From Argopecten irradians (Eukaryota > Mollusca > Bivalvia > Pectinida > Pectinidae): 64,000 nt of DNA. The stretch's first letter is position 1; every line of letters begins with the position of its first letter. The notes under the pieces are model-generated. The model did not search any database. It was not told the origin of the DNA and worked only from the letters and a program-made list of their open reading frames with translations. Position numbers and translations under genes: made by a program. Shown one piece after another: positions 5,460-30,780 of the stretch. The stretch lies in the NCBI RefSeq assembly GCF_041381155.1, contig NC_091142.1, forward strand, positions 21,352,362-21,416,361, given 5' to 3'.

Positions 5460-5980
5460 GCATTGTGAATAAAGGCAGGTTTTTCCTGCTTTACCGACCA
5501 CACTTGCCATATAATCTACTTTAAATCTAGACCAAATGTAGATTAAATCCAATCCAAACTTCCAGGTCAGGTCAAGGTCAAATCTGGGTCAATTTAGCAG
5601 TAATATATAAGAGAACACACAGAATGTATACGTGTGAATTTAATAAAAAAATATAATTAATTGTGAAGACTCTCAAGGAGTGGTCGAAGCCATCTTACCT
5701 GGAAATATAACAAAGAAAAAAATTAGATATAAGCATTTTGTAAATGCCTTTCTTAGTCTTAAAGATGCTAAACCGCTGACAAATTGTATTTTTACTATCA
5801 AAACAAGAGAAGACGAACACGTATTTCCCGTTAGTTGTAAAAGCAACTTATTTTACACCATAACAACCATTGAAAAATTTTGAGCTTCTAATCTAAATTA
5901 AGGATAAAACTATCAAAAACAGTTAATTACATCCCGAACAAATCAATGGCACTATGTTCTATATAGAATGAAGTACTGAT
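5460..5980. repeat. Unit 1 (D) of tandem array: 3' flank, exon 3 and start of intron 2
   Basis: Colinear with 9,960-10,465 and 19,905-20,425, the 3' flank, third exon and start of intron 2 of genes A and B. It also carries the left part of the AAAGATGCT-family inverted-repeat element shared by all three units (from about 5,760). Confidence 0.75.
5673..5698 (-). pseudogene. Orphan third exon of a fourth 12-Cys gene (D)
   Basis: On the minus strand a pyrimidine-rich tract and AG acceptor (5,699-5,700) lead into GT AAG ATG GCT and a TGA at 5,673-5,675. If joined to a T from exon 2, this would complete a Cys codon and add a seven-residue tail. The downstream sequence aligns with the 3' UTRs of genes A and B and keeps an ATTAAA signal (5,639-5,644). 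No exon 2 or exon 1 exists between here and 6.69 kb, where sequence homologous to the region upstream of genes A and B begins. The coding core has therefore been deleted. Confidence 0.6.
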
Positions 5981-10192: not shown

Positions 10193-10206
10193 GTGAATTT
10201 AATCTA
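10193..10206 (-). terminator. Poly(A) signal of gene A
   Basis: ATTAAA on the minus strand at 10,198-10,203, about 45 bases past the stop. A GTGTTCTCTTAT word follows about 30 bases later, at the place of a downstream element. It is conserved in units D, A and B, and recognisably in C. Confidence 0.6.
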
Positions 10207-10247: not shown

Positions 10248-13200
10248 TTAAGACTTGTGACCTGCAAATATAAGAAAGGAACAATTAGAAATCAATTTTT
10301 ATCGAATTGTATCTTTTCTCTATCAAAAACGGTAGAAATATTTTTCGTTTGTCGCAAAAGTTACTAACTTTACACCATAACCACCATTGAAAAGTTTTAG
10401 CTTCTGATTTTACTTCAAGATAAAAATGTCAAAAATAAGTAATTGTATCACGAAAAAAATCCATGGCATTATTAGGCCGGGATCAAGCTACCCCCCCCCC
10501 CCCCAACAACTTAACGAAAAATGTTTTTCTGAAGCCTTATGACCCACTGATAGCGAAATCGAGAGGTAACATTGTATAAACTGGGATGAACTTCCGGTTA
10601 TGACGTCATCAAGATGGCCGCCATCTCGAATTTCACTAAAGATTGAAAAATAGTCATAACATTGACATTTTTCAACCGAAGAAGACAAATGAGGCATCAA
10701 AATGACCACAATAGAACAACAAATACATATCAGGACTATATAATCCAATATATGTAGTTATTTCTACGCAGGAAATGAAAATATCGGATTTTAAGCTCAA
10801 AAATGGTAATTTGTTAGCAAATTTTTCATATTTGGCTTGACACAACAAAAATGTTTGCCAACAACAAGCTATTATTTCTAATCAGTTATTTGACCTTTTA
10901 TCAATCAGTAAAAACAATACCAACAAAAAATAACAATGTTAGCATTGTATAAGCCCCGGTTTAGTTGGTTTAGGGTTAAGTTGCTTTTCCTTAATTCGTA
11001 TGAAGCACAATTCCTCATTCTTGTGAACCCTCAATGACCATAGATAGCACAGGTGGAATCTTTGAGGTCATAAATGAGGTCTACAGTGAAGTTCCTCTCT
11101 TTCCCAAGTCTGGAGAGCACTGTAGAAAACTTTTTTCTGGAGAGTCTTCAATGATGTATCCACGAATACACCAGAAGCGACACAACCAGTACTTTTAAGG
11201 GACTGGGGAAAGTTTGACCAATGAAATTTAACATTTATGACCTCATTAAAAACCTCGAGGATATCACCTGTGCCATCTATAGTCGCACGAGTGTCCACAA
11301 GGTTGATGAATGGTGCTTGAATCATTCCACCATCCGAAGAATCTGGATCTGGTGTAATTTCCTGAGAGGTCTGAAACAACATATACGATATGTTAGGATC
11401 TGAAGGAGATCCCTCATCCCTGAACCTGTTGTTCCTGATATAAACTCCGGCCATGGATGGGTCATGAAAAATGACAGGCTAGAACACCACTGGTAATGTA
11501 GTGTCGCATCAGCTCATCGACATCGAAGACGACGCTCTGGCTTCGACAATGTACCAGCTACCAGACATGCCCAGTCACGTCAGAGGATAGTGCAGTGAGG
11601 GGGGGGGGGAGCACGCACAATGATAATGGTTATAATTGAGAACGAGTGAAAGAAATATGTGACATTGTGGTATCCATCTGACATTTTGCTTATACTATGC
11701 GTAGGAAATAAACGAAACTGTGATTTGTCCTACCTAGATATTCTGTCAACTTTACATTCATGTTTCCCACTTATAAATCGCCAATAGTCAAACTTATTTG
11801 AGGAACTTATAATACACCAGGACACTGTAGTGTCAGCGGTTTGGAGTTAGAAAAATAGCATATACCCAGTATACGCACCCGGTGATGTTTTGTAAACATA
11901 ATGATGGTATAACAATAATTCTTTTTGTATTTCTACATATTTTTATTGTTTAACTGAGTGATTAGAGGTCAAATAACTGTTTACGAATAATAGCTTCTTG
12001 TTGGTAAACATTTTTGCTGCGTCAAGCCAAATATGAAAAATTTGCTAAAAAATATCATTTTTGAGCTTAATTTTTTTTTCATTTCCTACATAGAAATCAC
12101 TACATATATTGAATTATGTGGTCCCGATATGAATTTGTTGTTCTATTATGATCATTTTTATACCTTATATGTCTACTTCGGTTGAAAAATGTTAAAGATG
12201 CTCCACCGCTGACAAATGGTATTTTTTCACTATCAAAAACAGGAGCAGACAATTTTGTATTTTTCTTCAGTTACAAAACTACTTATTTTACACCATTACC
12301 ACCGTTAAAAAGTTTGAGGTCTAATTTTACATCAAGTTAAAAATATGAAAAAATTAATTGCATCCCGAAAAAATTCCGTGGCACTATATCTTATATAGAA
12401 TGAAGTAATGATTGCGCATGCACCAAAGGCAAAATCAATTATTTTTTGTATTAATTAGGCCTACATATACACGATAAACACCAATTATTGTTCAAATGAT
12501 GAATATCATTTATACTCTGCGGCGGTGGAGCATCTTTAATGTTATGACTATTTTTCAATTGTTAGTGAAATTCGAGATGGCGACCATCTTGATGACGTCA
12601 TAACCGAAGCTTTACAATGTTAACATTGTTTTTTTGTTGGTGTTGTTTTTGCTAATTGATAAAAGGTCAAATAACTGATTAGAAATATAGTTTGCTGTTG
12701 GCAAACATTTTTTGTTGTGTCAAGCCAAATATGAAAAATTTGCTAAAAAATTACCACTTTTCAGCTTAAAATCCGATTTTTTCATTTTCTGCGTAGAAAT
12801 AACTACATATATTGGATTATATGGTCCCGATATGTATTTTTTGTTCTATTGTGGTAATTTTGATGCCTCATTTGTCTTCTTCGGTTGAAAAATGTCAATG
12901 TTATGACTATTTTTCAATCTTTAGTGAAATTCGAGATGGCGGCCATCCCCCCCCCCCCCTAGATCCCGGCCTATATGTTTTAATGGTGTTTAATCGTGTA
13001 TATTTATGTGGATTTAAAACAAAACATAATATAAAATAATTCATTTTGGTTTTGGTTGATGTGCAATCATACTTCATTCCATATAGGGCTTAGTGTCTTG
13101 GAATTTCGGGGCGCAATTAATTATTTTGAATAATTTTATCTTGAAGTAAGACCAAAGTCTCAATGACGATAGTGGCAGAAAATGGCGGTGAGTAACTTAA

Positions 13201-14438
13201 AATACTTACTCGGATGCCCTTGCTTTTGACATAAAATATACCATTCGTCAGCGGCGTAGCATCTTTGAGGAGCATTATCAGAAAAGCAGCAATATACCCC
13301 TCGGCGAGAGAGGACTTCTTTATCGGTTGAGCATGAGACCAAAGGTCCCGAGTTTGATCCCAGACAGGGGTTATGTTTATATACAATCCTAAATTATGTT
13401 ACAAATATTTACACTTATCGATAATATAGTAGATTTGTAGTCTTTTTCTCTTTAATCATTGAATTCTGCATTACATTAAAAACGAGCGGAACTATGTATA
13501 CATACATTGGCAATGTCCATGTGGACATGTAGCTGTGAACGTGCTGGTGCAGGAACAGTCAGACGCAGTTGTACATGCATGTGTTGAGTGACAGTGACAT
13601 GAATTATGGTGACACACATTGGTCAAAATAAACCCATGATGTGCTGGGCAGTCGCCGGTACAATCTGTGTCCGACGAACAGGCGGTGTTTCCGGCACCAC
13701 TGACCGTGTAGACTTTTAGAAAATAGAATACGGTAATAATGTAATAAAACTCAAAAAAGATAAGCTTCAATACTAGTCACGTATTTCTAAATAGAATACA
13801 AATAACATATATGATATACATGAAACATAAATGTATAATATATTACCCAGGGGCTATTATATCAATAGAATTTTATGTCTTTCGAAGTATACAAAAGAGT
13901 TCAGTGAAGAAATAACGACGATAATGCAGATGGTGGTTTTCGTTTTCATAGATATACGAAACTACGAAAGCCGATTGGGCTCATTTGGTAGAAGAAAAAA
14001 ATTAAATTTCGATTTATTACGCGAAACTGTTGGCGTTACTACGCGAAACCTTCGAGTCATAACGCGAAAAGTACTATATGTAATTACATAATATACACAA
14101 TAACGCCAAAGTTTCGCGTAATAACACGAAAAATTTTCGTGTAATAAAACGATAGTTTCGCGTATTAACGCAATGTTTTTTTCTTTTAGCCAAATTGAGC
14201 CCAATCGCCTTTCGTATGAAACTAAAACAAATCGGTAAGTCAGAAAAAAATTAGTATAAAAACAAAGAATACATAACTATATCCCAATTGAATTAAACAA
14301 AATTGACAAACAAATGTAATTGTTTATGTAAATATATACCGTTTGAATATATTTTTTCTATAATCGCATTATACATAATGTATTTATAATGAACTTACCA
14401 GTAACAACAAGGAGAGCGAGAACGATGGCGACCTTCAT
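10248..14438 (-). CDS. Gene A: secreted 12-Cys peptide, cvSI/I84-like protease inhibitor
   Basis: Three exons: 14,438-14,399 (ATG and first 13 codons), 13,712-13,506 and 10,261-10,248 (stop TAA). Both introns are phase 1 with GT/AG ends (GTAAGT, GTATGT). The predicted 86-residue product has a signal peptide (about residues 1-19) and 12 cysteines at 25, 31, 35, 47, 52, 54, 60, 66, 68, 76, 81 and 83, read as two tandem six-Cys modules each ending CxxxxCxC. The mature part has 10 histidines. By its size, secretion and 12-Cys pattern it resembles oyster plasma serine protease inhibitors of the cvSI type; this is unverified. The donor overlaps the last Cys codon, so intron retention would still give that Cys followed by MYT and a stop (13,492). 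Intron 2 holds a SINE head, an inverted-repeat element and a 2.5-kb transposon. Confidence 0.82.
11068..11454 (-). other. Unrecognised 128-codon open frame inside the 2.5-kb element
   Basis: Begins ATG at 11,454 and stays open for 387 bases in otherwise stop-rich sequence. The product is acidic and mixed in composition, with no motif, signal peptide or membrane segment that I recognise. It lies in the non-repetitive middle of the element. It could be captured host sequence, a remnant of a transposon protein, or chance. Confidence 0.25.
12195..12536. mobile_element. 342-bp TA-flanked MITE nested in the 2.5-kb element
   Basis: Inverted ends AAGATGCTCCACCGC and its complement are flanked by TA at 12,193-12,194 and 12,537-12,538. 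The host repeat reads GAAAAATGT-CA-ATGTTATGAC in its other copies and GAAAAATGT-TA-ATGTTATGAC here once the insert is removed. TA duplication with short inverted ends suggests a Tc1/mariner-type source. Relatives lie in intron 2 of units D, A and B and in the core of the element at 48,753-50,025. Confidence 0.75.
13310..13410 (+). repeat. tRNA-derived SINE head in intron 2 of gene A
   Basis: Contains TATCGGTTGAGCATGAG (box A-like) and CCGAGTTTGATCCCAG (box B-like), followed by TTATGTTTATATACAATCC. The same insertion lies at 20,752-20,850 in gene B, so it predates their duplication. The shared CGGTTGAGC links it to the SINE at 5,306. Confidence 0.5.
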
Positions 14439-14515
14439 GATGGTGGTTGTGCAGGGTTGGAATGTACACTAAGAATACTCAGCGACTGCCGAGACAAGAC
14501 TCCTTTTAAATAGAT
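14439..14515 (-). promoter_or_regulatory. Gene A core promoter and 5' UTR
   Basis: A TATA-like TATTTAAAA lies at 14,504-14,512, about 66-74 bases upstream of the ATG. The 60 bases between it and the ATG are almost identical to gene B (GTCGCTGAGTATT, TAGTGTACATTCCAACCCTG), which supports a retained promoter and leader. Confidence 0.55.
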
Positions 14516-14729
14516 AAAAAAAACTAGGCTATCACGATTAATCCAAATTTGGACAACCCTAACACGATCAAGTAACGTGAAACTATTATTTGTTTTTGCC
14601 AAACCGACGTCAGTGCATAACATATGTACTGGCACAAAATCTGGACACCTTATCAAAGATAGCAGCAGCAATTAGACATAGAATGTCGTGATACAGAATT
14701 CTGAATTGATATTCTATAATTGACATGGA

Positions 14730-15860
14730 TTTTGTAATATAATATAGTCCGGACGCCAACTAGCAATTTTTACCCTAACCCAAAATGTTTTGATATAGTT
14801 TTTTTTTCTTTGCTGAATATTGTCTATTGATATGTATATAATAAGATCAAGGTGGGTGTGAAGCTCCACTTTTGAGCCTTCAAGATGGCGTCCGATATGG
14901 CCGCCGAATTTTGGAAATTTCAATAATTCATACAGAAATCATATAAACCCAACATCGAAACCCAATTCATTTTAAATCTTTCTATGATACCGCTGGTATA
15001 AACGGAAATATACATCCATACAAAAAAACCAAGATGGCGGAAAAAATAGCTCAAAGTACTAAAAGCGATTAAAAGTTATTATATCTTACAAAATACAAGC
15101 TCATAAAGGTCGATTGTGAAATATATGTTTTAAGAATATAAGGAGGAGAAATTTTCCATATGTATATTTTGAAAATAATGTTTGATAATTTCAAGATTGC
15201 TGACCAAAATGGCGCTAAAATGTATTATGAATAACTTATTATAGTCGCGACTCCAACTATTTTATTCCGGCTTAATATTTCTGATAAAGGTTTTTTTTCT
15301 ATTTTGAATACAAACTATTGGTGTGTTTACAAATATGAATATAAAAATCGAGGTAAGAATGGACCCCATACCATTGAGTATTTTATTTTATTCAAAATGG
15401 CGTCTAAGTTAACCACTGGAATCTTGTTTTCGTTTCTTTAACATTCACGGTGTATTAGAATACCGACAATTTACATTTGTGATTTATGAGGTATATGTAG
15501 AGTATCCAGTCACACTCTGTATTAAATTTTAAAGATGGTGGACAAATATGACCGCCACTAGTTGTAGTATTCGTCCAAGATGACTGTTAAATATTGATCC
15601 TTCAAAAAGCTACCGCATATCTATTTATATCGTTTCAAGATTTTTAAGGATTCAAATGGTTTTTTTTTTAAATATTGTACACTATTAATATCATTACAAA
15701 CAAATCATGATGGCGGATAAATAGTACAGAGTCCTTGTAATAATTTTATATTTACCCTTACTTCAAAATGGAAATATGTTCATGTAGGTTAAATGTCAAA
15801 TACAAGGTTAACGTTATATAGGCACGGAACTATTCAATATGTATTTTTGAACAATTTTCA
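14730..15860. repeat. AAGATGGCG-rich dispersed repeat (copy 1)
   Basis: Degenerate sequence punctuated by CAAGATGGCG or CAAAATGGCG words at roughly 100-200 bp spacing. Colinear with 22,050-23,110, and matched in inverse orientation by 28,200-28,750. No coding frame. It lies directly upstream of genes A and B and travelled with them. Confidence 0.7.
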
Positions 15861-15867
15861 TTGATGA

Positions 15868-17475
15868 TACACTAGATGGTTGACCAAAATGGTCGCCAGG
15901 ATCTTTGGTACATGTATGTATGTAATAAATAATATCCAGGTGGGTGTGAAGTTTACCTGGCCTCTGAAATCAAGACGTTGTAATAAGGTCTTTAACATTC
16001 AAATAATAAACCGACTATTAACATTATCGTTGTATGGTTTCATTAGTGATATGTTGTGTTTCTTTTAACCGCTTTCATCATTCAAAATATCCAAATGGTC
16101 GTCAATAGCTTAGGATATGTATTGCCTGCTTATTGATGTTCCAAAATAAAAAAAAAATAAAAAACTTTGCATGTTAACTTCATAATCCAATATCAATCAA
16201 GAGATCTGATATGAATGCATGATGATGTACTAAGATTGCCGGCTTAGATCCATCATGGAAGGAGAAAAAGGCGGACAAACACACTGTAGAGCATGTAGTC
16301 TTCTTTGTCTTAAGTTAAAAAGAGGGAAGTAGAAAGGAACAGTTGAAAAATAACTCTTCTATCGTGGACAAACACAGATCAAAGAGACGAAGACGGATTT
16401 ATACATGAAGTTAATTTTAATAAGCGCTTGAAGTTCGTAGACTATATGAATGCCAACTGCGCGCAAACATATCCCGTGGAGCGCGTTAGCGCTCCACGGA
16501 AGATAAGTAGTAGCTTTGCTATTCATAGCCGCTATGAAAATTAGAAATAAAATCCATATATTAACATAGAATAATTTATGAAAATAAAAAAAATAAGGTT
16601 AATGGAACAGCTGGATGACAAAGTCGTTCCATAACGTTGCGTTTTCACGCTTTCCGCCTTCCGGAAGACCATTTTTTGCAAATGATAAAAACGATAAACA
16701 TCATAAAATAAGAATTGATGATACATTAAAATATTCTGAGGGACTATATTTTTTATATGAAACTGGCGTGATGTTTAAAATCAGCTGATCGATGCACGAG
16801 AATCGTTGTATTCATAGTGTATTCATAGGCAAATGTTTGTTTTCGTCAGTTGGTTAATTCATATAGTGACGAAACATTCGTAATGTAGATATATATTAAT
16901 AAATTATTTATAAAACGATATGAATAGAATGGTATCTAACAAGCAAGGACTTTTTGAATATATTCCATACGGTTGTCAAGGTTAGATATAAATAGAGGTT
17001 CCCCAACAAGTGACTGTTGTTTATCATGTTTATCAAACTCGAGTTAGTTAATTTTCAAATTTAGAAAATACACGAGCTTTAGCGAGTGCTTTTAAAAAAT
17101 TGAAAATTAACAAACTCGAGTTTAGATAAACATGATAAACAACAGCCACGCGTTGGGGAACTTATTTATCCCATAACTTTAACTCTATATTTATACCCCT
17201 GTGATAACTAACTGTTATGGAACTTATCACATGGGTTTTCCATTGTGAAGCATGCATAATTATTGGATAGATAGTGACCATGACTTACGATTAAACCACA
17301 GTGGAAGGTACCTGTAGGTCAAAGTTCATCTGAATAAATCTATCAATACCTGCACTAACGGCGAAATGGTATGGTGTGTGCCCTCTCAGTTTATAGTAAT
17401 TAAAACATAACATATTACTGTATCTATGCTGATATATATATAATGTATATTTGTAACTTGCTATTTAATGAGAAC
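15868..17475. repeat. Unit 2 upstream flank (array repeat)
   Basis: Homologue of 6,712-9,035. It preserves the empty sites for the 368-bp retroposon (16,035-16,043) and for the 3.5-kb element (around 16,315). A 26-bp near-perfect palindrome CCGTGGAGCGC-GTTA-GCGCTCCACGG lies at about 16,473-16,498, with a weaker version at about 7,702-7,727. Confidence 0.8.
16982..17175. repeat. GTTCCCCAAC hairpin element (copy 2)
   Basis: Arms start at 16,998 (GTTCCCCAACAAGTGACTGT) and end at 17,161 (GCGTTGGGGAAC). Inner arms contain TGTTTATCATGTTTATC and its inverse. The loop contains CACGAGCTTTAGCGAGTGC, which is missing from the copy at 8.3 kb. A non-coding foldback element. Confidence 0.75.
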
Positions 17476-19487
17476 AACGATTTTGTATGTTAGATGTCAG
17501 AAACAAATACTTTCTGCTTAAATTGTTTTTTACCATTGCAACCATTGCAATAACACTTATGATTGATTGTTTGTATTTTGTCAGTAAATCTTGTCGTCTG
17601 TGCACAGAAATCTCTATCTGTTATTGGCATTTAACGGCCCATTACCTTTCCGAAACAAGGTCTTCAAGTTTCTTAAAACAATAACATAAGATAATGTCTA
17701 TTGATTGCCTGCCGCCTTAGACGAGGTTACACACCAAATAAGTAAATTCTCACCGTAATCTATGTTAACATTGAAATTCATTTCACTGTTGTGCCGTCTG
17801 GTGCTGTGATAGTCAAGCAGCACACGGTAATTAGGACGACGTCGGGAAACATAAGACGACCCGCGTTATGAAAATTAATATTTTTAAAAAATAATTTTGA
17901 TTTATTTGTTCAGAAGGTGATAATGAGTTTTGTATGAACGGTAAGCTTATATTTTTTCCGACTAAACAAAATTATCAAACTCTTTTTAGTTCCCATTTTA
18001 AAAATCAAAGCCTTTTTGAGCCTTTAACAGACACCCACACTACACTGCTACACGTACTGTAGGGCTTTATTTAAACGGTCAAAAACGTGCACTGAGCGGG
18101 CCATTAAAATCTAGATTGTCCAATAGAGCATTGTTGATGATAGTTATTGTTATGGTTTACGAAAACAGTTTCTTTCGTCTGAAATCCATCGCTGCACAAA
18201 TGTCGACAGTTTGTTGAGTTCTGTACTTAGGATGGCGCCAAAGTGTGTTTATGGATCTATACATTTTGACCTCTCGGAGGACATGTAGCCAATTGCTGAT
18301 AATGAACAGGTTGCTGGGTACTGTATAAACTTTGTACGCATTTCGATTGGTTAGCAAGGCGAATTTTGACCAAACTTCTATTTAGTCAGTGCCATTTGAT
18401 ATCTTTTCAACGTCACCAATAATGAAACGAATCTGAAATGGACTTGAACTTGAATATATTAGTTTAATGATTATTTGGCAGGAGTATATGCAGTTGTGTG
18501 ATCGCACAACGCACGACGTACTAAAAAAACAGTGTGCGCACACCGCACAGACATCGTGCGCACATCTTGCACCCGATTGTACGATGTGCGTTACAAACCG
18601 CACCTTTGTTCGATTCGTATCGTACACTGCACATTTTGGAATGATGAGTTGATTTAAATTACGAAATCATTAGCTGGCGGAATATCTTATTGTAATTAAA
18701 TTGCCGGTTAGAAACTCTTGTTTTATATCACATAATATATTACTTGCATTACATTAGTAATTGTTGTTTAACTACGTACATGGACGATACGATGATAAAT
18801 GTTTAGAAGTGGAGACGTACATTGCATGTAGGCATAGCTGTACTGCACAGAAAACAGTTTTTCTGCACGATATTATCGGAAGTGTGTTTGTGTGGGTGGG
18901 GGACTTCGTGTGAAAGATGGGCTGATGAATCTGAAACGTATTTGGATGGTCTAAGATGAGTTATACGACGTATTGTTTTACTTTAACGCGTTCTTCTTAA
19001 CGTGGTTGGTTGTTTTTTTTTAAATAACACTGAAAACGGATTAATTCTGATTGCAGATAAATACGATGCATTTTTTTTACTTTAAAGCGTTCTTCTTAAC
19101 GTGGTGTTTTTTGGGTCTTTTTTTTTTAAAAAAATAACACTGAAAACGGATTAATTCTGATTGCAGATAAATGTCGTCATATCCTTATGAGAACATGCGC
19201 TGTATGTTTTCTACACGCGGTCGTATCGTTGGTTATATTCCTACTACACTGCGATTAAATGGTAGAGCAATTGTGTGAGAATTCTTTATGCATGTAAGGG
19301 CTGTTACTCTCATTGAATCATTTGTATACCTTGACACGCAAGGACTAAATGAAATTTTCACGAATAAGTAAACCTAAAAATAACGGGCGATCCGGATAAC
19401 AAATTTAACTATATAACGTTATTCTCGGTTTGTATGTGTAGTTCTGGTTTTGAAAAAGGAAACATATATGACTTTTTATGAGTATTA
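17476..19487. other. 2-kb insert between units 2 and 3
   Basis: Unit 1 passes directly from TTTAATGAG to GCGTCAATGG, but here 2 kb separates them. No gene is recognised. It holds a GGACGACGTCGGG repeat (about 17,834, related to 26,014), a decayed hAT-like relic (18,334-18,495) and a tandem duplication of about 100 bp at 18,970-19,172 (unit contains GCGTTCTTCTTAACGTGG and GAAAACGGATTAATTCTG). Confidence 0.6.
18334..18495. repeat. Decayed copy of the GTACGCAT element
   Basis: Shares GTACGCATTTCGATTGG, CAGTGCC, CAACGTCA and GATGATTATTTGGC-type words in order with 51,853-52,200. Internal parts and the right end are missing. Confidence 0.55.
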
Positions 19488-20170
19488 TGCGTCAATGGTA
19501 CACTGTAGCTACGTCACTGATTACTTACAATAATAATAAATTGATTGTCTTACTGAGACATATAAACTAATTCATATTTCACGATACATTTTTTGTAATA
19601 GTTGTATTTGATATAAGCGCATTTTAATTAACATAGAATTACAAGTCGTAAATCATCAATTTTATGTTTAACCATACTGGGCGATTTACATTAAGTAATC
19701 AAATGTTTTGATAAGTTGTGCTTGTTTTTTGACGTACCTTAACTAAAAAGACTTGTAAGTCTAAAACCAGTTTGATGATTTTTTTATAGTTCCAAATGTA
19801 ATTAATGTACCGCTAATTCTTCTAAACTTAGGTTTGCTACTCCGAATAATTTCCGTTTTATATTTCTCGATATCAAAGTAAATTGGAACAGGCCAAACTT
19901 TACTTTGTAGATATTGTGGATAAAGGAGGTTTTTTCTGCTTTACCAATTATACTAACCATATGATCTACTTGAAAACTAGATCAAATGTAGGTTAAATCC
20001 ATATCAAACTTTCAGTTCAAATTAAGGTCAAGGTCATGTATACAAGTTACATAAGATGTTTCTACACAACGTGACAAAGCAGTAATATATAAGAGAGCAC
20101 ACGGAATGCATAAGAGTGAATTTAATCTAACCCAAAATATAATTAATTGTGAAGGCTCTTAAGGATTGGT
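19488..20170. repeat. Unit 3 start: 3' flank of gene B
   Basis: Colinear with 9,038-10,247. It keeps the empty site for the TTAA element at about 19,566. It includes the ATTAAA signal of gene B on the minus strand (20,121-20,126) and the downstream GTGCTCTCTTAT word. Confidence 0.75.
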
Positions 20171-21791
20171 TTAAGACTTGTGACCTGCAAATATAACAAA
20201 GGAAAAATTAGAAATCAATTTTAATGACTTCCTTAGTATTAAAGAAGCTACACCGGTGACGAATTGTATCTTTTTTCTATCAAAAACGGGAGAAATACTT
20301 TTCGTTTGTCGCAAAAGTTACTTACTTTACACAATAACCACCATTGAAAAGTTTTAGCTTCTGATTTTACTTCAAGATAAAAATATCAAAAAGAATTAAT
20401 TGTATCACGAAAAAAATCCATGGCATTATGTTTTCATGGTGTTTAATCGTGTATATTTATGTGGATTTAAAACAAAACATAATTAAAATAAATCATTTTT
20501 CATATAGGGCTTAGTGTCTTAGTGTCTTTTAATAATAATTAATTATTTTGAATAATTTTATCTTGAAGTAAGACCAAAGTCTCAATGACGATAGTGGCAG
20601 AAAATGGCGGCGAGTAACTTAAAATACTTACTCGGATGGTCTTGCCTTTGACAAAAAAATACCATTCGTCAGCGGCGTAGCATCTTTGAGGAGCATTATC
20701 AGTATAATGTATGTAACCTTGGTAATAAAAGCAGCAATATATCCCTCGGCGAGAGAGAACTTCTTTATCGGTTGAGCATGAGAGATCCCGGGTTTGATCC
20801 CAGGCAGTGGTTATGTTTATATACAATCCTAAATTATGTTACAAATAGTTACACTTATCGATGATATAGTAAATTATAGTCTTTTTCTCCTTAATCATTG
20901 AATTCTGCATAACATTAAAAACGAGCGGAACTATGTATACATACATTGGCAATGTCCATGTGGACATGTAGCTGTGAACGTGCTGGTGCAGGAACAGTCA
21001 GACGCAGTTGTACATGCATGTGTTGAGTGACAGTGACATGAATTATGGTGACACACATTGGTCAAAGTAAACCCATGATGTGCTGGACAGTCGCCGGTAC
21101 AATCTGCGTCCGATGAACAGGCGTTGTTTCTTGCACCACTGACTGTGTAGACTTTAAGGAAATAGAAAAACGGTAGTAACGTAATAAAATTCAAAATAGA
21201 AAAGCTTCAATACTAGTCAAGTTTAATTTATTTCCAAATAGAATATGGTATTAATGTAATATTTTCAAAATAATTAAGCTTCAATCCTAGTCATGTATTC
21301 TAAATAGAATACAAATAACATGTATTATTTACTTGTAACATAAATGTGCAATGTAGTATCCAGAGGCTATAATCGAAAGCATACAAAAGGGTTTAGTGAA
21401 GAAATTACGAGGCGATAAAGCAGATTTTTTTGTTTGCCACAATGGCGGTTTTTGCTTTCATAGATGTATAAAATCGTACAAAAACAAAGAATACATAACT
21501 ATATCCCAATGAAATTGAACAAAATTGCCACAAATGTTTATGTAAATATATACTGGAGGATATAAGAAATGAGATATAATCATTGCAACCTATTTTCACA
21601 CTAATAGTGCTTTCATAATAAAAGAGCTAAAATACGAATATGTTGAGCAATACAACGCTGAAGATTATACGTTCCATTTTCGTATTGCATTAGAGTCACC
21701 AACAGTGTAATATGGAGTCATTATTGTTTAAATATTCTTTTTTCAACTTACCAGTGACAGCAAGGAAAGCGAGAACAATGACGATCTTCAT
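20171..21791 (-). CDS. Gene B: secreted 12-Cys peptide, cvSI/I84-like protease inhibitor
   Basis: Three exons: 21,791-21,752 (ATG, 13 codons plus one base), 21,151-20,945 and 20,184-20,171 (stop TAA). Introns are phase 1 with GT/AG ends. The 86-residue product has the same cysteine positions as gene A and the same C-terminal CHKS tail. It differs from A in the signal peptide and at four positions near the mature N-terminus (Gly to Arg, Thr to Asn, Thr to Ala, Ile to Thr). The last 122 coding bases of exon 2 are identical to gene A. A TATA-like TTAAAAAGG lies at 21,856-21,864. Reading on past the second donor would give a stop at 20,931 after MYT. Probably a secreted protease inhibitor; the target is unknown. 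Confidence 0.82.
20239..20688. mobile_element. AAAGATGCT-family MITE in intron 2 of gene B
   Basis: Left end TTAAAGAAGCTACACCGGTGAC, right end GTCAGCGGCGTAGCATCTTT. The same insertion is in intron 2 of gene A (right end about 13,248-13,266, left end eroded) and begins at 5,760 in unit D. It therefore entered before the array expanded. Family member of 12,195-12,536. Confidence 0.65.
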
Positions 21792-21870
21792 GATGGTGGC
21801 TGTGCAGGGTTGGAATGTACACTAAAAATACTCAGCGACTACCTCGATTCGACTCCTTTTTAACAGATAC
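21792..21870 (-). promoter_or_regulatory. Gene B core promoter and 5' UTR
   Basis: TTAAAAAGG at 21,856-21,864, followed by a leader nearly identical to that of gene A (TCGCTGAGTATT, TAGTGTACATTCCAACCCTG). Confidence 0.5.
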
Positions 21871-22049
21871 AAAAATTAGGTCATCACGTTTTATCCAAAT
21901 ATAACAACCCTAACACGTTCGAGTAACGTGAAACCATTTTTTTCCAGACTGAGGTCTGCATAGGCCTATCAAATATGTAACAATTAGATATAGAATGTAA
22001 TGATATATATTTTTTGAACTAATATTATATAATTTACAGATTTTGTAAT

Positions 22050-23110
22050 TTAATATAGAATTTGTACTAGCAAAGTTTACCCTTACACTATATGTTTTGA
22101 TATAGTTTTTTCTCTGCTGAATATTGTCTGTTAATATGTATATAATAAGATTCATGTGGGTGTGTAGGTTCCTACCATTGAGCCTTCAAGATGGCGTCCA
22201 TAATGCCAATGCATAATTTCAATAATTCATACAGAAGTCATATAAAACCAACATCACAACCCTATTTATTTTAAATCTTTCTATGATAGCACTTGTATAA
22301 ACGGAAATATACATCCATAAAAAACAAGATGGCTGACAAGTTTAAAAGTTCTCCTATCTTACAAAATACAAGTTCATGTTGATTGTGAAATTAAGGAGGA
22401 GAACTTTTCGATATGTATATTTTGAAAATAACTTTTCATAATTACTAATCTAAAGATTGCGGACCAAAATAGCGCCAATATGTATTATAAATAGTTTATT
22501 ATAGTCGCGACGCCAACTATTTTATTCCGCCTCAATATTTCTGATAATTTCGAATACAATCTATTGGTATGTCTATAGATATGATTTTAAAGATTCAGGG
22601 AAGCATGGACCTCGCACCATTGATTTTTTCATTTTATTCAAAATGGCGTCTTAGATAACCACTGGAATATTGAAGTTGTAATCGGTTTTTTAACATGCAC
22701 GGCAAATAACAGTTTACATTCGAATTTAATTATATATATGTAGAGTATCCAGTCACGCTATGTTTTAAATTTTCAAGATGGCGGACACTTATAACCGTTA
22801 ATAGTTGTTGTATTCGTCCAGGATGGCTGCTAAATATTGAAGCATTCCATAGTTCCTTCAAGAAACCAACTGCAAAACTATTTATATCATTTCGAAAGTT
22901 TTAAGGATTCAACTGCTAATTTTTTAAAATATTATGCACTATTTATATCATTACAGAAAAATCATGATGGCGGATAAAATAGTCAAAGGTCTTCAAATAC
23001 TTTAATTGGTACCCATACTTCAAAATGGAAGTATATTCATGTAGGTTAAATGTCAAATACAAGGTTAACGTCATATTACCACGGAACTATTCAATATGTA
23101 TTTTTGAAAA
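22050..23110. repeat. AAGATGGCG-rich dispersed repeat (copy 2)
   Basis: Colinear with 14,730-15,860 and carried in the same duplication. No coding frame. Confidence 0.7.
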
Positions 23111-23117
23111 ATTATCT

Positions 23118-23560
23118 TCGATGATACACTAGATGGTTGACCAACATGGTCGCAAGGATATTTGGTACATGAATGTATGTAATAAATAATATCCAGGTGG
23201 GTGTGAAGTTTACCTGGCCTCTGAAATCAAGAAGTTGTAATAAGGTCTTTAACATTCAAATTATAATCCGACCATTAACATTATCGTTGTATGGTTTCAT
23301 TAGTGAAATGTTGTGTTTCTTTTAACCGCTTTCATCATTCAAAATATCCAAATGGTCGTCAATAGCTTAGGATATGTATTGCCTGCTTATTGATGTTCCA
23401 AAATATAAAAAGTCATGTTTAACTTCAATATCCAATATCAATCTAGAGATCTGATATGAATACATGATGATGTACTAAGATTGCTGGCTTAGATCCATCC
23501 TGGAAGGCGAAAGAGGCGGACAAAACACGGTGTAGACCAAGCAGCCTTCTTTTTGGTTTG
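23118..23560. repeat. Unit 3 upstream flank, interrupted
   Basis: Homologous to 6,712 and 15,868 onward. It is broken at about 23,560 by the long-inverted-repeat element and resumes at 27,026 for about 95 bases. Confidence 0.75.
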
Positions 23561-23570
23561 TGAAAAAATT

Positions 23571-26500
23571 GTGAGCGGCTAAGGTCGATTTTTCGGCGAA
23601 ATCGTTCAAAGTTTGAAGAAAGTATGAAACTTTGCATAGGGCTTCTTTGGGACATAAGGTTTCAGGAAAAAAATGGACCCAAAAAATCACAGCCCCTGTC
23701 TGCCGCCATATTGGTTTTCAAAATGGCTGCCAAAAATCACCTTAAAACCCATAACTTGCGTTCTATAACAGCTAAATCCATGCATCCAATGCATCTAATT
23801 AGCTAAGCTGACTTTAAGCAAATATAGAGACAGCACTTATACTTGTGTAGTGTTTTGTACATAAGTAATTTGATTTTTAATTTAATTTCAACGTGACCGC
23901 CATTTTGAAATCAAAGATGGTCATTCATTTAAATTTAAGTTGTTTCCATATTTTACTCTGTAAACACTCATAAAATGTTGATATGATATGCCTTGAATTA
24001 TATTTGAATAAATTCCTGGATTGTAACTCTGCATGCGTAATCGGATGATCATCTTTCTTTTCGACTCCTCAACTAGAAGATTTTCAATGTCGCAAGTCAA
24101 CAGCGATTGACCAAATCACTGCCCATTTGCAGATAACACTAAACTCATTCCTTTCAAATCCCTCCTCACAGTGAAACTCCTATAGAAATGGCAAGTCATC
24201 TTTTAACACTTCAGAACATCTAGACGCATTTCACCTTATGGTGTCTAAGAACAAATCCACCTTATTTCTCGTGTGTATGTATGCATTCCTTCTTCAGGTC
24301 ATACTGACGTTTGTTATCCTCATTTGCCTTTAACAAAATTGATAAAACTATTTTCTTTTAGTGGCCATGGCTTTTTTCCTCTCTTTTTCGAGATGTCTGC
24401 CAATTTACTTAGCATTTTCTCAGGACAACAGCTATATGTTTTTATGGAGCTAGAGTAGTAGAACGCACAAGAGTGCCCAGTGACACAATCAACAGCTTGC
24501 ACTATCGGTCCCACTTTTTGTCATAGGCAAGGTTCCGGATGACCAATATCGGACTAAGTTACTCTGCTGTCTATATGGACCAAATATTGTTTACACTATC
24601 ATCTCCATTGTTTGCACTTTTTGTGGTTTGAAGGCTTACGGTTCTTCTGTTCTCCATCGCTGCAATTTACTTTCGCCTAGTCCTTGGTGCCGTATGCATG
24701 GTTTACTGACGGTGGCTATGTGTTTTAGGTGGATTTATTTTGTATATACTGACCGCTAACATAGTGCTTTATCTCTGTTCTTTATTCAACACCATCATCT
24801 TCATCTCCTGAGATTGGGAGTTCTTCAAAGGTTCAGCTAAATTTTGTAAAGCTTCGTCATAGTGGAACTTATTACTATCTTCGCAAGGACTTGTTTGATA
24901 GACGTACCACAAGGTTTCATGTCATGCGAGGTAAACTTCCACGCTTTGGCGGCATAACCTTGCTATGAACTAACTCGAAGTCCTTTCTTATGTGGAGTCT
25001 CCTGGTGTTGTTTGAGTCGTTCAGAACTACATCGCACCAATTTCCCAGACACTTTATCTTATTATTAACAATAGAGGGAATATCTTCCCCTGAATCCACA
25101 TCAAATTTCCTGAGATGCGGTTGACGGCCGGGCATGGTTATGCAATATAAGAGCGGCATCTAATCCATGAAGCCTCCCTTGGAGGACGAATCCCAAATGA
25201 TATCCTTGGATTTAGTACTTCTGTCTGCAGGTCTGATAATAAGAATCTCAATCACTCAAAGATTATCTAGGATGACTGCCTAAGTGATTTCTGATAAAGT
25301 CCTTGCTGTGGTCAGAAAAAAGGTATGATATCATCCATATGCATTAAATAGTTTCAGTCATAGTAAACCATTTGAAGCCTTGAATGCCTTCTTGCTTTAG
25401 CGAAAATATATTCGCTAGCCGTCATGAATATTTCCATTCTTTTGGCAAATAATATCTTACACGCCATATCTAAAAGAAGATTATCCTCAATTGATATTTG
25501 TTTACAGTTTGTGTCTTTGGGAAATGGCAGATGACATTAATGATTCTCCACAGTATTTTTTGTAAGGTTTTGGCAAATCTTGCATTTGTAGACAGTGCAA
25601 GGTATGCCAATAGGTTATTGTGCTGATGTAGTGAATATCTCCTTCAGGAAAGGTTATTTCCAAGGTACATGATATAGATGATTTCACAGAGCAATATGTG
25701 ATTTTTCTCTAATTAAATAATAACTTACATTTTGTGTTAAAAAGTCTCTGCCAAAGCCTCTTTTTAGAGTTAAAGCATTAACACTGAGTTCTTGTATGAG
25801 TGTTCTTTTCAGAATGACCAATATTGCTGTCGTGTCAAATTTGATTCTAGAACTATAATTATCTTTTAGGCGGGAAAATGGATGTGAAACATGAATGTTT
25901 TTTCAAGCTGCTATACATTGAAAGAGTTAATAGTCCGATACCTATCCGAAAGGATAAAATGATTCCAAGTTTACTAATAGCCGAAGTGAAAGTCAACCAC
26001 GGTGTGTTTATAAGGACGACGTCGGGGATCATAAACGACCCGCTTTATGGAAATTAACGTTTGCATTTGATTAATCTATTCAGATTGGTTCAGAGAATAG
26101 TGCTAAGTATAATATTTACAGAAGTTAATACCATTTGAGACTCAAGTTTTACAGCAATGTTTCAAAATTATCAGCTGTTTCGGCTAGTTTATGTACCTTT
26201 AATCTAATGCTACCGGACATCTTGAATTTCAGATTTGCAGCCATTTTGAATGTTAAATGAAAATTGAATTTAAAAAAACGCTAAAAAACAGGAAAACTCA
26301 CTGCAATTGCAGGTATTTTATTTGCTTAAATCAGCTTAGCCAATCATTATATTATTATTATATTTGGCGGCCATCTTGGAATGCAAAATGGCGGTCTTTC
26401 TACATGAAGTTTAACACTACCAGAATGATCCTAAGTATCACTAAAAATAAATATCAATAATTTGGGTGTAGATTCTAAAGAATGTTCTCTTGATTTTTTG

Positions 26501-27025
26501 CTCGATCACTTAGAGAATGAAATTCGGAAACATCTTTGATTTAAACGGCCATCTTGGATTCCAAAATGGCTGTCATTTTGAAATTAAAATAAGACTCAAA
26601 CTATTCATGTTACAAACTCTACGAAAATATAAATACTCTCATTGTATTTGCAGGTGGTTATTTGCTTAAAGTCAAATTAGTCATTTAGGTGTATTATATA
26701 CAGATATAGCTCGAAAAGTAGGCAGCCATCATGAAATACAAAATGACGTCCTTCTACTTGACGTTTAACACTACCAGAATGTTCCTAGGAATCAATAATA
26801 TGGGCGTAGACGTTTAAAGTATTGGTCTAGCTGTTATAGAACGTGAGATATAGGTAGCAGAAGGTGGTTTCTGGCGGCCATTTTGAAAACCAATATGGCG
26901 GCCAAAAGAGGCCGTGATTTTTTGGGGTCCATTTTTTTCCTGAAACCTTATGTCCTAAAGAAGCCATATGCAAAGTTTAATGCTTTCTTCAAACTTTGAA
27001 CGATTTTCATGCTTAGCCGCTCCAC
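23571..27025. mobile_element. 3.5-kb element with about 210-bp terminal inverted repeats
   Basis: Left arm 23,571-23,782 and right arm 26,817-27,025 are inverted copies: GTGAGCGGCTAAG, GTTTGAAGAAAG, AAACTTTGCATA, GGACATAAGGTTTCAGG and CGTTCTATAACAGCTA all recur inverted in order. Units 1 and 2 have no element at the matching site (about 7,555 and 16,320). The target duplication is unclear. Sub-terminal sequence is rich in ATGGCGGCCAT-like words. At 26,225-26,850 a unit of about 354 bp occurs twice in tandem (shared TTTAACACTACCAGAATG and TTGCAGGT..TTATTTGCTTAAA). No transposase was recognised. The interior holds a degraded reverse transcriptase fragment. Confidence 0.75.
24917..25190 (-). pseudogene. 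Degraded non-LTR reverse transcriptase fragment
   Basis: The open frame contains IPSIVNNKIKCLGNWCDVVL followed by an NDSNNTRR stretch. This resembles the region downstream of the catalytic core in a LINE reverse transcriptase common in invertebrates (IP-x-V-x(4)-IK-x-LG-x-W-x-D). Only about 80 residues are open, and flanking frames hold only scattered hints. No catalytic YxDD box was found. The clade is unresolved, and this is from memory of the family. Confidence 0.45.
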
Positions 27026-27120
27026 TAAAAGGAGGAAATAGAAATGGACAGCTAAAAAAAATAGCTTTTCCATCGTGGACAAACACGGTCAAAGAATAAG
27101 AAGTACATGAAGTTAGTCTT

Positions 27121-28190
27121 TCTTGACGATATTGGGGTCGTCGTGATTGGGGGAAATCCATAGAAGAAAATATGAAGTATAACAAACTGGTGACAAAGTG
27201 AAGAAATGTGTTGCTCTTCAATATTATGTTGAAGTGGGCTGCAGAATTTAGTTTACGTGTGCAAACGAATTGAATGCAGCTGACACTTAGACTGACAGGA
27301 ATAACAACAATCGCAGCCATTGGGTGTTTGCCAAAATCTGCAGACTATAGTAAAGGGTAGATTAGCCATTGTTGAAACCTACGTAGACGATCATTGGTTT
27401 GTCACTATTTACCCATCGGTCACTCAAAGCTATGGTGACAAGTCAAAATGTAAGAGGAGGGCTTGTACAGCATGAACTTGTAAATAGAGGCTACTAAAGT
27501 CAGTAAACTAAACACTAGTGACATACTTCAAGTTACGAAGGCTTCAGGATACACAATATCGTAATTTATAAATCATCACATAGTAGTTCTGTGAGACAGA
27601 GGTATATTATTGATATTATTGTCAGTGCGAAACTTCAATACAGTATTTCTGACAAGCCAATGTGTACTGAATCTAATACGGACAGAAACGTTCCTAGAAG
27701 ACAGCCCTTCAGATGGCAATTTGTATATGAGCAGTAAATGGAATAATCGGTATCAGTCTTAACAAGTTCAAATGTCAAATAAATGAAATATAACTAAACT
27801 AACACGTGGTTGATGAAAGCATTTTTTTATGCTCTTGTAGCATAAAACATCGTAACCAAACAATTAAGATTTCAATGTTTTTGTTAGATTATTTTCTATC
27901 CTTAGATTGACGATTCAGGGAATTTGGCATTATAAATATCAATCTTTGAATATGAAAATAAAGACAGTACATATCTAAAGCTATGGATGGCCACTTGTGT
28001 CCATTATCGTTTAATTTCGAATAATGAAAAGGTTAATGGAAACTTTACATGTTAATCCATAAAGCACGAATAAGTTATTTCCGGTGTTTTGAATATTTAA
28101 TTCTCAAAATGAGCTACACAATCATCTGATACTTATTATGTAACAATATGTATTATTCAGGAAAAAAATAGAAAAAAAACTGTATAATGT
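27121..28190. other. Intergenic, no feature recognised
   Basis: After the resumed unit 3 flank ends near 27,120 the sequence appears unique. A 121-codon minus-strand frame ending in the inverted repeat arm (26,955-27,320) overlaps the transposon edge and shows no family resemblance. Confidence 0.4.
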
Positions 28191-28199
28191 ATTTTTGGT

Positions 28200-28750
28200 C
28201 AGGACAAAAATCTCTAGTTTGTAATACTATAATAGATTGGTCCACCATCTTGATTTTAATAATCATCAAAGATTATTTTAAAAATATATTGATGTACAAT
28301 GTTTATACGACATACATGTATTAGTTTAGCAATTAACAATTGAATCGCAAGAAAAAAGACTTAAATGTAATAAATACAGTTTTACTGTTGGCTTGTATCT
28401 GGGTTTCGATTTCCGACCATCTTGAACGAATATGGCAGCTACTGGCGGCCATATTTGTGTCCACCGTCTTGAAATTTTGGTTACTGAGAGCGTTAATGAA
28501 AATTCTACATAATAAGACATATAGATAATTAAGTACAAATTCAAATAGTTATTTTTTATTCGGTGTGAATTTTCACAGTGGAATGATTCCAAAGGTCATC
28601 TAAGACGCCATCTTGAATGCTTCATAATACTCAAGAATGTGTACTTCACACACATGGATCTTTATGTGTAATATTGTACATGCATGTCAATAGAAAACAT
28701 GATAAGTTATTTATTTTGGCGACGTTTTGGTCTACCATCTTGAATTTAGG
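28200..28750 (-). repeat. AAGATGGCG-rich dispersed repeat (inverted copy)
   Basis: The reverse complement matches parts of 15,390-15,600 and 22,630-22,860 (TTCAAGATGGCGTCTTAGAT, CTTTGGAAT, TTCAAGACGGTGGACAC). Orientation is opposite to the copies upstream of genes A and B. Confidence 0.55.
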
Positions 28751-29130
28751 AATTATCAAAAAACCAGTTTTAGAATATACGTATTGGGTAATTTTGTTCT
28801 TTATCATCGACCTCCAGGTATTATTTTCACTATCGTTATGTACACCCCATAACTATGTCATAGCAGATCTGAAGGCAGATGGTAAGACAGGGTAATATGC
28901 TAGTTTGATATGCACCACAATTACACAATGATAGAGGTATACTATTGTTGAGCGTCGAGTGGAAAATGCTAAAGCCTGTTTAGGCTTGAAATTGTTTTCT
29001 TTTCTCCCGTGAAGTTTTTTTTTTCTCTCGTAAGGTATTCAGTTTTTTCTATGAAAAAAGTCCAGGAGTGGATATTAAGACAGGTGTGATATTGTTTCAT
29101 GAAAACATAAGAGAACACTTAACTGATACT
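28750..29130. other. 3' flank of gene C
   Basis: No gene is seen. Unlike genes A and B, this flank keeps little array homology beyond the first 60 bases after the stop. Confidence 0.4.
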
Positions 29131-29134
29131 CATG

Positions 29135-29146
29135 TATATTTAATCC
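29135..29146 (-). terminator. Poly(A) signal of gene C
   Basis: ATTAAA on the minus strand at 29,139-29,144, 34 bases past the stop. GTGTTCTCTTAT lies about 30 bases further on, matching the arrangement in units D, A and B although the surrounding sequence has diverged. Confidence 0.65.
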
Positions 29147-29177
29147 AGCACAAAATGATACATTAGTGTAAAACAAC

Positions 29178-30780
29178 TCATGGATGCTGATGATGACCTG
29201 GAATTGAAATAAAAGCAAATTCAGAATGTTTGAAAATACAACTCTTAACACGTAACCGTTGTCCAATGTTAACCTTGTATAATAAAAATGGTTAGGATTC
29301 AACTTATATGATTTGTTTCGTTTTCAAATATTTTATTGACTAAAAATGTTGATATGTTATCATATTATATAATTAATAAGAGTGGACATCAGACGTTTCT
29401 TGTCGTAGTCTCCTCTGATACTGATGGTACAAATAAACATGTAGTGAAGGTAAGTAGAGGTAACTCCAGGATGTCGAAAGATATTACCACTTTTCTTATG
29501 TAATGTATTTCCCTAAATCGAGATGTATTTTCATTTTTAATGCATTCCCCAAATTAATAGCGTGAACACGGTTATTGAAAGTCATTGAAAGAAAAATCTC
29601 TTCAAATTACCCAAATTTCATTGTAACCAAGGAGAAAGATAATGAATACGCGTGCATAGGTAACATATAACATTTCCAATTAAGCAATACTTCAATATAG
29701 CTGATTTCAAATAAAATGGGTCCCACTGTAATTTGAACGTATATTGATAACCTTGTGAGGGAGATGATTGTAGTTAGTTCCCCAGTTAAAACCAAGTAGG
29801 CGCATGATTTGATCAATTTATACTTAATATAACCAACAGATAAATGCCCTGATAACATTTTACCACACCTTTCTACAGATCTTATAACATTTTTTTCTCT
29901 CAATACATATCCTACTTATAACAAAGAAAGACGGTAAATGTGGTATACTTACAGTGACAATGTCCATGTGTACAGGTAGCTGTGAATCCAGTATTACAGG
30001 AGCAGTCAGAGTCCATTGAGCACTGGTGGGTTGAGTGGCAGTGGCATGATCCATGGTGGCACACATTGGTCATGGTCATGCCGCCATGTACGGGACAGTC
30101 AGCAGTACAGTCAGCGTCAGACGTACAAGCCTCGTGTTGGGCACTCACTGTGTAGGCTAAAACAAAGAAACATCAATATGCAACAGATTTATAGCGTTCA
30201 GTTTTTATTTTGTTTCATTTTATTTTATTTATTTTCTATTTTCAATTTATTTATTTATTTATTTATTGCCTAAATTTACCACTACCCAGTTGATATTCAT
30301 ACTTCCATAATTGCCAACTGAATGCAGTTCAATATTTGAATAGTCACACAGGTGAATTCCCTAAGATATACAATATGTTACAAAATATGAATGACTACTG
30401 AATGGAAGCTGAAAAAAATAATTGATATACATTTCAAAATTTCAATTTCAATAAATTTCAAACACATTTCAAAATTTCAATTTCAATAAATTTCAAACAC
30501 AAAAAATGCAATCACACATAGCATTTTTTTAATTTTTTTTTTAGATATTGACCGGTCTTATGTCGCCATATTTAAACTATTGCATATTAACACCAATTTG
30601 TATTGGTATAATCTTATGATACAAAAAATCGACTTTGAACGAACTTGATATATTGTTTATAAAAAGTCAATCAAACGTTAAATAAAGAGGTTCACGTAAA
30701 ATATTACATCCGTCGCAAATCACAATTTAAGGTGTCTTACCAACTACCAAGAGGCAGGCGAATACAACAGCAGTCTTCAT
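29178..30780 (-). CDS. Gene C: secreted Cys/His-rich peptide, cvSI/I84-like protease inhibitor
   Basis: Exons: 30,780-30,741, 30,156-29,953 and 29,197-29,178 (stop TGA). Donors are GTAAG and a consensus GTAAGT that overlaps the last Cys codon; the exon 3 acceptor follows TTTATTTCAATTCCAG. The 87-residue product has a signal peptide (about 1-19, MKTAVVFACLLVVAYTVSA) and cysteines at 24, 30, 34, 46, 51, 53, 59, 65, 67, 75, 80 and 82, the same spacing as A and B. The tail after Cys82 is HHQHP. Thirteen of 68 mature residues are histidine. If intron 2 were retained, the frame would run to TAG at 29,912 with an unrelated tail. It is the most diverged member of the array and has the clearest TATA box. 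Confidence 0.85.
30195..30545. repeat. Simple repeats in intron 1 of gene C
   Basis: A (TTTA)n tract at about 30,200-30,270 and a duplicated AATTTCAATTTCAATAAATT unit at about 30,438-30,500, with T-runs after it. Confidence 0.7.

What the first reader, a model, noticed from the sequence alone, without database searches (positions are those of the whole stretch)
10248..30780. Three-exon secreted 12-Cys genes whose last cysteine codon is split by an intron
In genes A, B and C the second donor falls inside the twelfth Cys codon (T|GT). Exon 3 restores it with GT and adds only 3-5 residues. The donor is GTATGT or GTAAGT, the acceptors have pyrimidine tracts, and each exon 3 is followed by ATTAAA. 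Frame-based gene prediction would miss exon 3 and give wrong tails (MYT in A and B, a 13-residue run-on in C). The splice plan recurs in the unlinked-orientation gene E.
Basis: partly seen in the sequence, partly recalled or inferred. Interest (0 to 1): 0.75.

Follow-up and report, generated by a model that had tools for sequence, protein, structure and literature searches.

The report
Three-exon twelve-cysteine secreted protein genes
A small cluster of mollusc-like genes for secreted twelve-cysteine proteins probably does carry a tiny last exon that completes the final cysteine codon, but that cysteine is read with or without splicing, so this is a tidy variant of a familiar gene layout rather than a surprise.

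Summary
Genes A, B and C each rebuild as leader exon, one exon with cysteines 1-11 plus the T of cysteine 12, and a short exon 3, at the stated bases. Comparison supports exon 3: between A or B and the diverged copy C, a block of about 125-130 nt (29 nt of intron, acceptor, exon 3, ATTAAA and beyond) scores above all 300 shuffles, whereas seven control comparisons do not stand out. No RNA was available.

Two corrections. Introns start with GT, so T|GT reads Cys whether or not intron 2 is removed; only the tail depends on splicing. In gene E both outcomes give the same protein, so E adds little.

The proteins resemble molluscan Family I84 (cvSI) protease inhibitors: twelve cysteines in a 6+6 array, two phase-1 introns, clustered copies. 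But the published razor-clam genes put cysteines 1-6 in exon 2 and 7-12 in exon 3; here all twelve begin in exon 2. E fits the razor-clam spacing at 10 of 11 gaps, A and C at 7 of 11, so membership of A-C is unproven. A new variant of a known kind, of modest interest.

The parts
14399..14438 (-). Gene A exon 1, coding part (leader)
13506..13712 (-). Gene A exon 2: Cys1-Cys11 and the T of the Cys12 codon
10248..10261 (-). Gene A exon 3, coding part: GT of Cys12, HKS, stop
10198..10203 (-). Gene A ATTAAA, 58 nt into exon 3
21752..21791 (-). Gene B exon 1, coding part (leader)
20945..21151 (-). Gene B exon 2: Cys1-Cys11 and the T of the Cys12 codon
20171..20184 (-). Gene B exon 3, coding part: GT of Cys12, HKS, stop
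20121..20126 (-). Gene B ATTAAA, 58 nt into exon 3
30741..30780 (-). Gene C exon 1, coding part (leader)
29953..30156 (-). Gene C exon 2: Cys1-Cys11 and the T of the Cys12 codon
29178..29197 (-). Gene C exon 3, coding part: GT of Cys12, HHQHP, stop
29139..29144 (-). Gene C ATTAAA, 53 nt into exon 3
43508..43556 (+). Gene E exon 1, coding part (leader)
44472..44669 (+). Gene E exon 2: Cys1-Cys11 and the T of the Cys12 codon
46508..46515 (+). Gene E proposed exon 3, coding part: GT of Cys12, T, stop; AATAAA 75 nt into it
   Evidence: not supported by comparison
1189..1386 (+). Copy D: E-like exon 2 only; E's exon 1 segment and exon 3 have no counterpart beside it
5673..5698 (-). Orphan exon-3-like block (acceptor, GT, short open tail), ATTAAA following
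   Evidence: ends of the open tail read by eye

Best explanation
A, B and C are clustered copies of a gene for a small secreted protein with a 6+6 cysteine array, most like the molluscan Family I84 (cvSI) protease inhibitors. Each has a leader exon, one exon for both halves, and a terminal exon that supplies the last two bases of the Cys12 codon, 3-5 freely varying residues, the stop, the 3' untranslated region and the poly(A) signal. Both introns are phase 1. Shown by comparison for A, B and C: the acceptor, exon 3 and what follows are conserved as a unit. Shown by reading the sequence: Cys12 is kept whether intron 2 is removed or not, because the intron itself begins with GT. Inferred, not shown: transcription, splicing, secretion, disulfide pairing, and inhibition of proteases in host defence.
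For: Exact gene models. Exon 3 block of A and B against C: 0 of 300 shuffles in each of four tests, while the 200 nt after exon 2, both introns and the flanks of the same loci do not stand out. Exon 2 similarity between A or B and C stops 10 bases past the donor. Proposed acceptors outscore all other AGs in the next 4 kb in A (175), C (175) and E (159); in B one of 190, further downstream, is better (splice frequencies recalled, approximate). Cysteine 12 kept in spliced and unspliced readings in 4 of 4 genes. Family lead: PMC9198434, 10 of 11 gaps for E.
Against: No RNA. The acceptors were first chosen by a reader who looked for good acceptors, so their rank is partly circular. Donors of intron 2 are weak (0.7, 0.7, 2.3, 0.1 against 6.8, 6.8, 2.9, 6.4 for intron 1). 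Family: exon layout differs from razor-clam I84, A and C fit only 7 of 11 gaps, and likeness to the published I84 motifs beyond the cysteines is not established (16 motif tests, lowest 13/2000). No Pfam model reaches its cut-off. A-B selection estimates disagree by method: dN/dS 0.041/0.110 (NG86) and 0.062/0.051 (YN00).
Confidence: 0.65

Rival explanations
1. The messages normally end inside intron 2: exon 2 is the last exon, with tails MYT, MYT and a 12-residue run-on in C, and the exon-3-like block is a remnant.
For: Cys12 and a stop are present without exon 3; intron 2 donors are weak; A has an ATTAAA 49 nt into intron 2.
Against: The 200 nt after exon 2 are not conserved between A or B and C (139/300, 92/300), whereas the exon 3 block is (0/300 each); no AATAAA or ATTAAA in the first 260-300 nt after exon 2 in B, C and E. 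In C the unspliced tail adds a further cysteine.
Confidence: 0.12
2. The proteins are not protease inhibitors but secreted His- and Cys-rich peptides (metal-binding or antimicrobial) that share the 6+6 cysteine array and the gene plan; the exon 3 reading stands as above.
For: 10, 10 and 13 His and 1, 2 and 0 Lys+Arg in mature A, B and C of 67-69 residues, by my guess of the cleavage site; spacing of A-C departs from razor-clam I84 at 4 of 11 gaps. Weak sequence matches of C and E to CS-alpha-beta-type peptides in the PDB (best E 0.095 and 0.49).
Against: No family model reaches its cut-off for any such class either; E has only 3 His.
Confidence: 0.3
3. Gene A has two alternative last exons, the near one at 10261 and the orphan block at 5698.
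For: The orphan keeps acceptor, GT, an open seven-residue tail and ATTAAA, and lies downstream of A on the same strand; no other exon 2 was found between them.
Against: Against A the orphan block is no better conserved than its flanks (107/138 and 242/306, Fisher p 0.71), as expected of a neutral relic; its 3' untranslated part alone is a little higher, 74/84.
Confidence: 0.07

Closest known systems
Molluscan Family I84 serine protease inhibitors (cvSI-1/2/3 of oyster, scSI-1 to -14 of razor clam; PMC9198434)
   Same: Leader, about 65-70 mature residues, 12 cysteines in a 6+6 array, three exons with two phase-1 introns, tandem clusters with damaged copies.
   Different: In the razor clam exon 2 holds Cys1-6 and exon 3 holds Cys7-12; here exon 2 holds all but two bases of Cys12. 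Spacing fits at 10 of 11 gaps (E) and 7 of 11 (A, C). A-C are His-rich and have CHC, not CTC, at Cys5-6.
Mammalian WFDC / semenogelin / SPINT genes (PMC3209443, passages)
   Same: Leader exon, one exon for the secreted protein entered in phase 1, and a last exon of mostly or only 3' untranslated sequence with the poly(A) signal; first and last exons conserved while the middle one varies.
   Different: Unrelated proteins in vertebrates; in those genes the stop usually lies in exon 2, not in exon 3. A parallel in layout only.
Mytilins and other bivalve CS-alpha-beta peptides (PMC7168163, passages)
   Same: Secreted cysteine-rich bivalve defence peptides from multi-exon genes; one CS-alpha-beta-like spacing per half in E.
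   Different: Mytilin genes have four exons, an eight-cysteine mature peptide and an anionic C-terminal extension.

Membership tests
Family I84 (MEROPS) | 12 conserved cysteines in a mature peptide of about 7-9 kDa behind a leader | tested here: met
   A, B, C, E: 12 Cys after the leader, 6.96-7.36 kDa with a guessed cleavage site; the published razor-clam range is 7.1-9.3 kDa, so A, B and E are slightly light. The leader was judged by eye, no predictor was run
Family I84 (MEROPS) | Razor-clam array CX5-8CX4-5CX7-9CX4CTCX6-23CX5-7CX3-6CX5-8CX4CXC | tested here: inconclusive
   Gaps in range: E 10 of 11, A 7 of 11, C 7 of 11; CTC in E, CHC in A and C. The range is for one species only
Family I84 (MEROPS) | Three exons, two phase-1 introns | tested here: met
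   A, B, C, E as models from DNA; E's exon 3 is weakly supported
Family I84 (MEROPS) | Cys1-6 in exon 2, Cys7-12 in exon 3 (14 razor-clam genes) | tested here: not met
   Cys1-11 and the T of Cys12 lie in exon 2 in A, B, C and E. Whether this defines the family or only the clam genes is not known here
Family I84 (MEROPS) | Sequence likeness to known members beyond cysteines | tested here: inconclusive
   Four published motifs against A, B, C, E with Cys-fixed shuffles, 16 tests: lowest 13/2000 (C, motif 2), the other fifteen 168-1551/2000. No member sequences were held
Family I84 (MEROPS) | Inhibition of subtilisin-type serine proteases | not testable with these tools
   needs protein
CS-alpha-beta superfamily | C...CX3C...C...CXC spacing (recalled) | tested here: inconclusive
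   Present in both halves of E and the first half of A and C; second half of A and C has CX1C
CS-alpha-beta superfamily | Fold | tested here: inconclusive
   Models of low confidence, mean pLDDT 65.8 (C) and 64.8 (E); Foldseek gave 4 and 22 matches at E up to 10, none at 0.001

The most novel reading that the evidence does not exclude
The Cys12-splitting phase-1 intron sits at the end of the second six-cysteine half, in the place that corresponds to the razor-clam intron at the end of the first half. Both may descend from one ancestral module exon with phase-1 introns on either side, whose duplication built the 12-cysteine family, different introns being kept in different lineages. Standing at T|GT also makes the protein indifferent to whether the last intron is removed: retention or early polyadenylation still yields the full 12-cysteine product, in E the very same protein.
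Probability: 0.2. Interest if true: 0.5.

Novelty: new variant of a known kind. Interest (0 to 1): 0.3.

Why it matters
Gene models that stop at exon 2 would give these genes slightly wrong C-termini but the right twelve cysteines, which bears on annotation of fast-evolving mollusc defence genes. The exon layout differs from the one I84 gene survey that I read and could help to show how the two six-cysteine halves arose.

Tried and rejected
Exon 3 of E compared with that of A and C: not beyond shuffles (51/300, 206/300). Orphan block as a conserved alternative exon: no extra conservation over its flanks; its acceptor score was taken at a wrong base and is not used. ATTAAA alone as evidence for exon 3: background too high. 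Two halves as an internal duplication: on Cys-fixed shuffles clear for C (2/2000), not for A (326/2000) or E (1056/2000); B not run. Structure prediction and fold search: too low in confidence. Pfam: Nodulin_late (A, C), Myticin-prepro and New_glue (A) and Toxin_2 (E) are all under their cut-offs. Viral contigs scanned for relatives of E: two loci with a 19-residue match each, not followed. The window's own genome is not held. Species not identified; 'mollusc' rests on the family resemblance only.

Full report
What is there. Three genes on the minus strand (A, B, C) and one on the plus strand (E) have the same build: a first exon with 40 coding bases (49 in E) that reads as a leader, a second exon of 207, 207, 204 and 198 bases, and a third exon with 14, 14, 20 and 8 coding bases. 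Both introns are phase 1. Intron 2 starts after the T of the twelfth cysteine codon and exon 3 starts with GT. The coordinates in the finding are right. The proteins have 86, 86, 87 and 84 residues and twelve cysteines after the leader (C and E have one more within the leader). Intron 2 is 3244, 760, 755 and 1838 bases long. A six-frame scan for this cysteine pattern, or for 9 or more Cys in 60 residues, gave seven rows: A, B, C, E, one more copy D, and two that I set aside, a simple-repeat frame at 31291-31617 and a frame at 9267-9536 without the pattern.

Is exon 3 real? A and B are near copies, so their agreement says little: exon 3 block 135/142, flanks 320/341. C is the useful one. Its exon 2 matches A and B at about 72 percent over 208 and 219 aligned positions, and the similarity stops 10 bases past the donor. 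Local alignment of 201 bases around exon 3 scores 61 (A-C) and 65 (B-C); 0 of 300 dinucleotide shuffles reach these, in each of two runs. The aligned block runs over 29 bases of intron, the acceptor, exon 3, ATTAAA and a GTG(T/C)TCTCTTAT stretch that begins about 20 bases after it. Seven control comparisons of the same loci did not stand out: after exon 2 (B-C 92/300, A-C 139/300), intron 2 (B-C 80/100), intron 1 (B-C 35/100), downstream (B-C 298/300), upstream (B-C 277/300, A-C 229/300).

Splice sites. With generic frequencies that I recalled, the proposed intron 2 acceptors outscore all other AGs in the next 4 kb in A (175 candidates), C (175) and E (159); in B one of 190 is better, and it lies further downstream. 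A reader looking for good acceptors chose them, so this is partly circular. The intron 2 donors are weaker than those of intron 1 (0.7, 0.7, 2.3, 0.1 against 6.8, 6.8, 2.9, 6.4), as expected if the cysteine codon forces T at the last exon base. AATAAA or ATTAAA follows exon 3 in 4 of 4 genes and exon 2 in 1 of 4 (A) within 260-300 bases, against a background of 0.71 per 260.

What the split codon does. It does, but so does the intron: T followed by GT reads TGT. Translating into the intron gives ends CMYT (A, B), CKYTTFTVFLCYK (C) and CT (E); the spliced ends are CHKS, CHHQHP and CT. So the twelve cysteines are safe either way, with an additional cysteine in unspliced C, and for E the protein is unchanged. 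The tails differ between A/B, C and E, so I read exon 3 as mainly a 3' untranslated exon that also holds the stop.

Copies and relics. D (1189-1386) matches exon 2 of E at 195/198 bases while the intron stretches around it match at 0.91-0.94 (270/295, 183/201, 1240/1354, 100/107). Relative to E it lacks about 1.9 kb that holds exon 1, and the similarity ends directly before E's acceptor AG. It is probably a broken copy and is only described here. An exon-3-like orphan block lies at 5698-5673, 82 percent identical to A over 139 bases; it is not better conserved than its flanks (107/138 and 242/306). Gene A's intron 2 holds about 2.5 kb (12973-10473) that B's lacks, with inverted arms of 239 bases, 96 percent complementary.

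What family. The best lead is Family I84. Of PMC9198434 I saw the abstract and outline, parts 1-3 of 6 of the text, part 1 of 2 of the discussion and part 1 of 2 of the reference list. [quoted passage not shown] 13 of the 14 are clustered. E matches the clam spacing at 10 of 11 gaps, A and C at 7 of 11. Likeness beyond the cysteines is not established: in 16 motif tests with Cys-fixed shuffles the lowest was 13/2000. No Pfam model reaches its cut-off, and PDB sequence matches are weak (two for E, best E 0.49; six for C, best 0.095). A, B and C carry 10, 10 and 13 His and 1, 2 and 0 Lys+Arg, which leaves room for a metal-related or antimicrobial role. A duplication of the two halves is clear for C only on the strict test (2/2000; A 326, E 1056); on full shuffles 2, 0 and 9 of 2000 reach the score of A, C and E. 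Selection: A-B dN/dS 0.041/0.110 (NG86) but 0.062/0.051 (YN00); A-C 0.270/1.75 and B-C 0.246/1.70 (NG86; YN00 gave none).

What is known of this layout. A leader exon, a protein exon entered in phase 1 and a last exon of 3' untranslated sequence with the poly(A) signal is the plan of the mammalian WFDC, semenogelin and SPINT genes (PMC3209443, passages only). Mytilin genes have four exons (PMC7168163, passages only). I made ten paper searches; no title or passage that I saw describes a Cys12-split last intron in I84, but most listed papers were not opened, the oyster gene papers cited by PMC9198434 were not read, and subscription journals are not held, so I make no claim that it is unpublished.

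Verdict. The stated importance is overdrawn, because the cysteine does not depend on that exon. It is a new variant of a known gene plan, of interest mainly to those who annotate or study mollusc protease inhibitors and their relatives.

Noticed in passing
1189-3139: Copy D: an exon 2 nearly identical to E's (195/198) although the segments holding E's exon 1 and exon 3 have no counterpart beside it. The similarity ends directly before the acceptor AG of E, which is odd.
   Followed up: partly
5673-5698: Orphan exon-3-like block with acceptor, GT and ATTAAA; no matching exon 2 found between it and gene A.
   Followed up: yes
10473-12973: About 2.5 kb in intron 2 of gene A that B lacks, with long inverted arms (239 bases, 96 percent complementary); similar sequence also at 47104-47652.
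   Followed up: partly
37493-39085: Minus-strand frames matching integrase core (rve), RNase H-like and reverse transcriptase models above cut-off: a retrotransposon, in pieces.
   Followed up: partly
48789-49030 and 49840-49989: Two arrays of 21-base units with the palindrome TTGTACGTACAA, the second in reverse orientation, about 0.8 kb apart.
   Followed up: no
31164-31560: Array of about 19 copies of a 21-base unit beside gene C, open in more than one frame.
   Followed up: no
58001-60000: Strong G over C excess (skew 0.275) unlike the rest of the window, where 2-kb values lie between -0.08 and 0.10.
   Followed up: no
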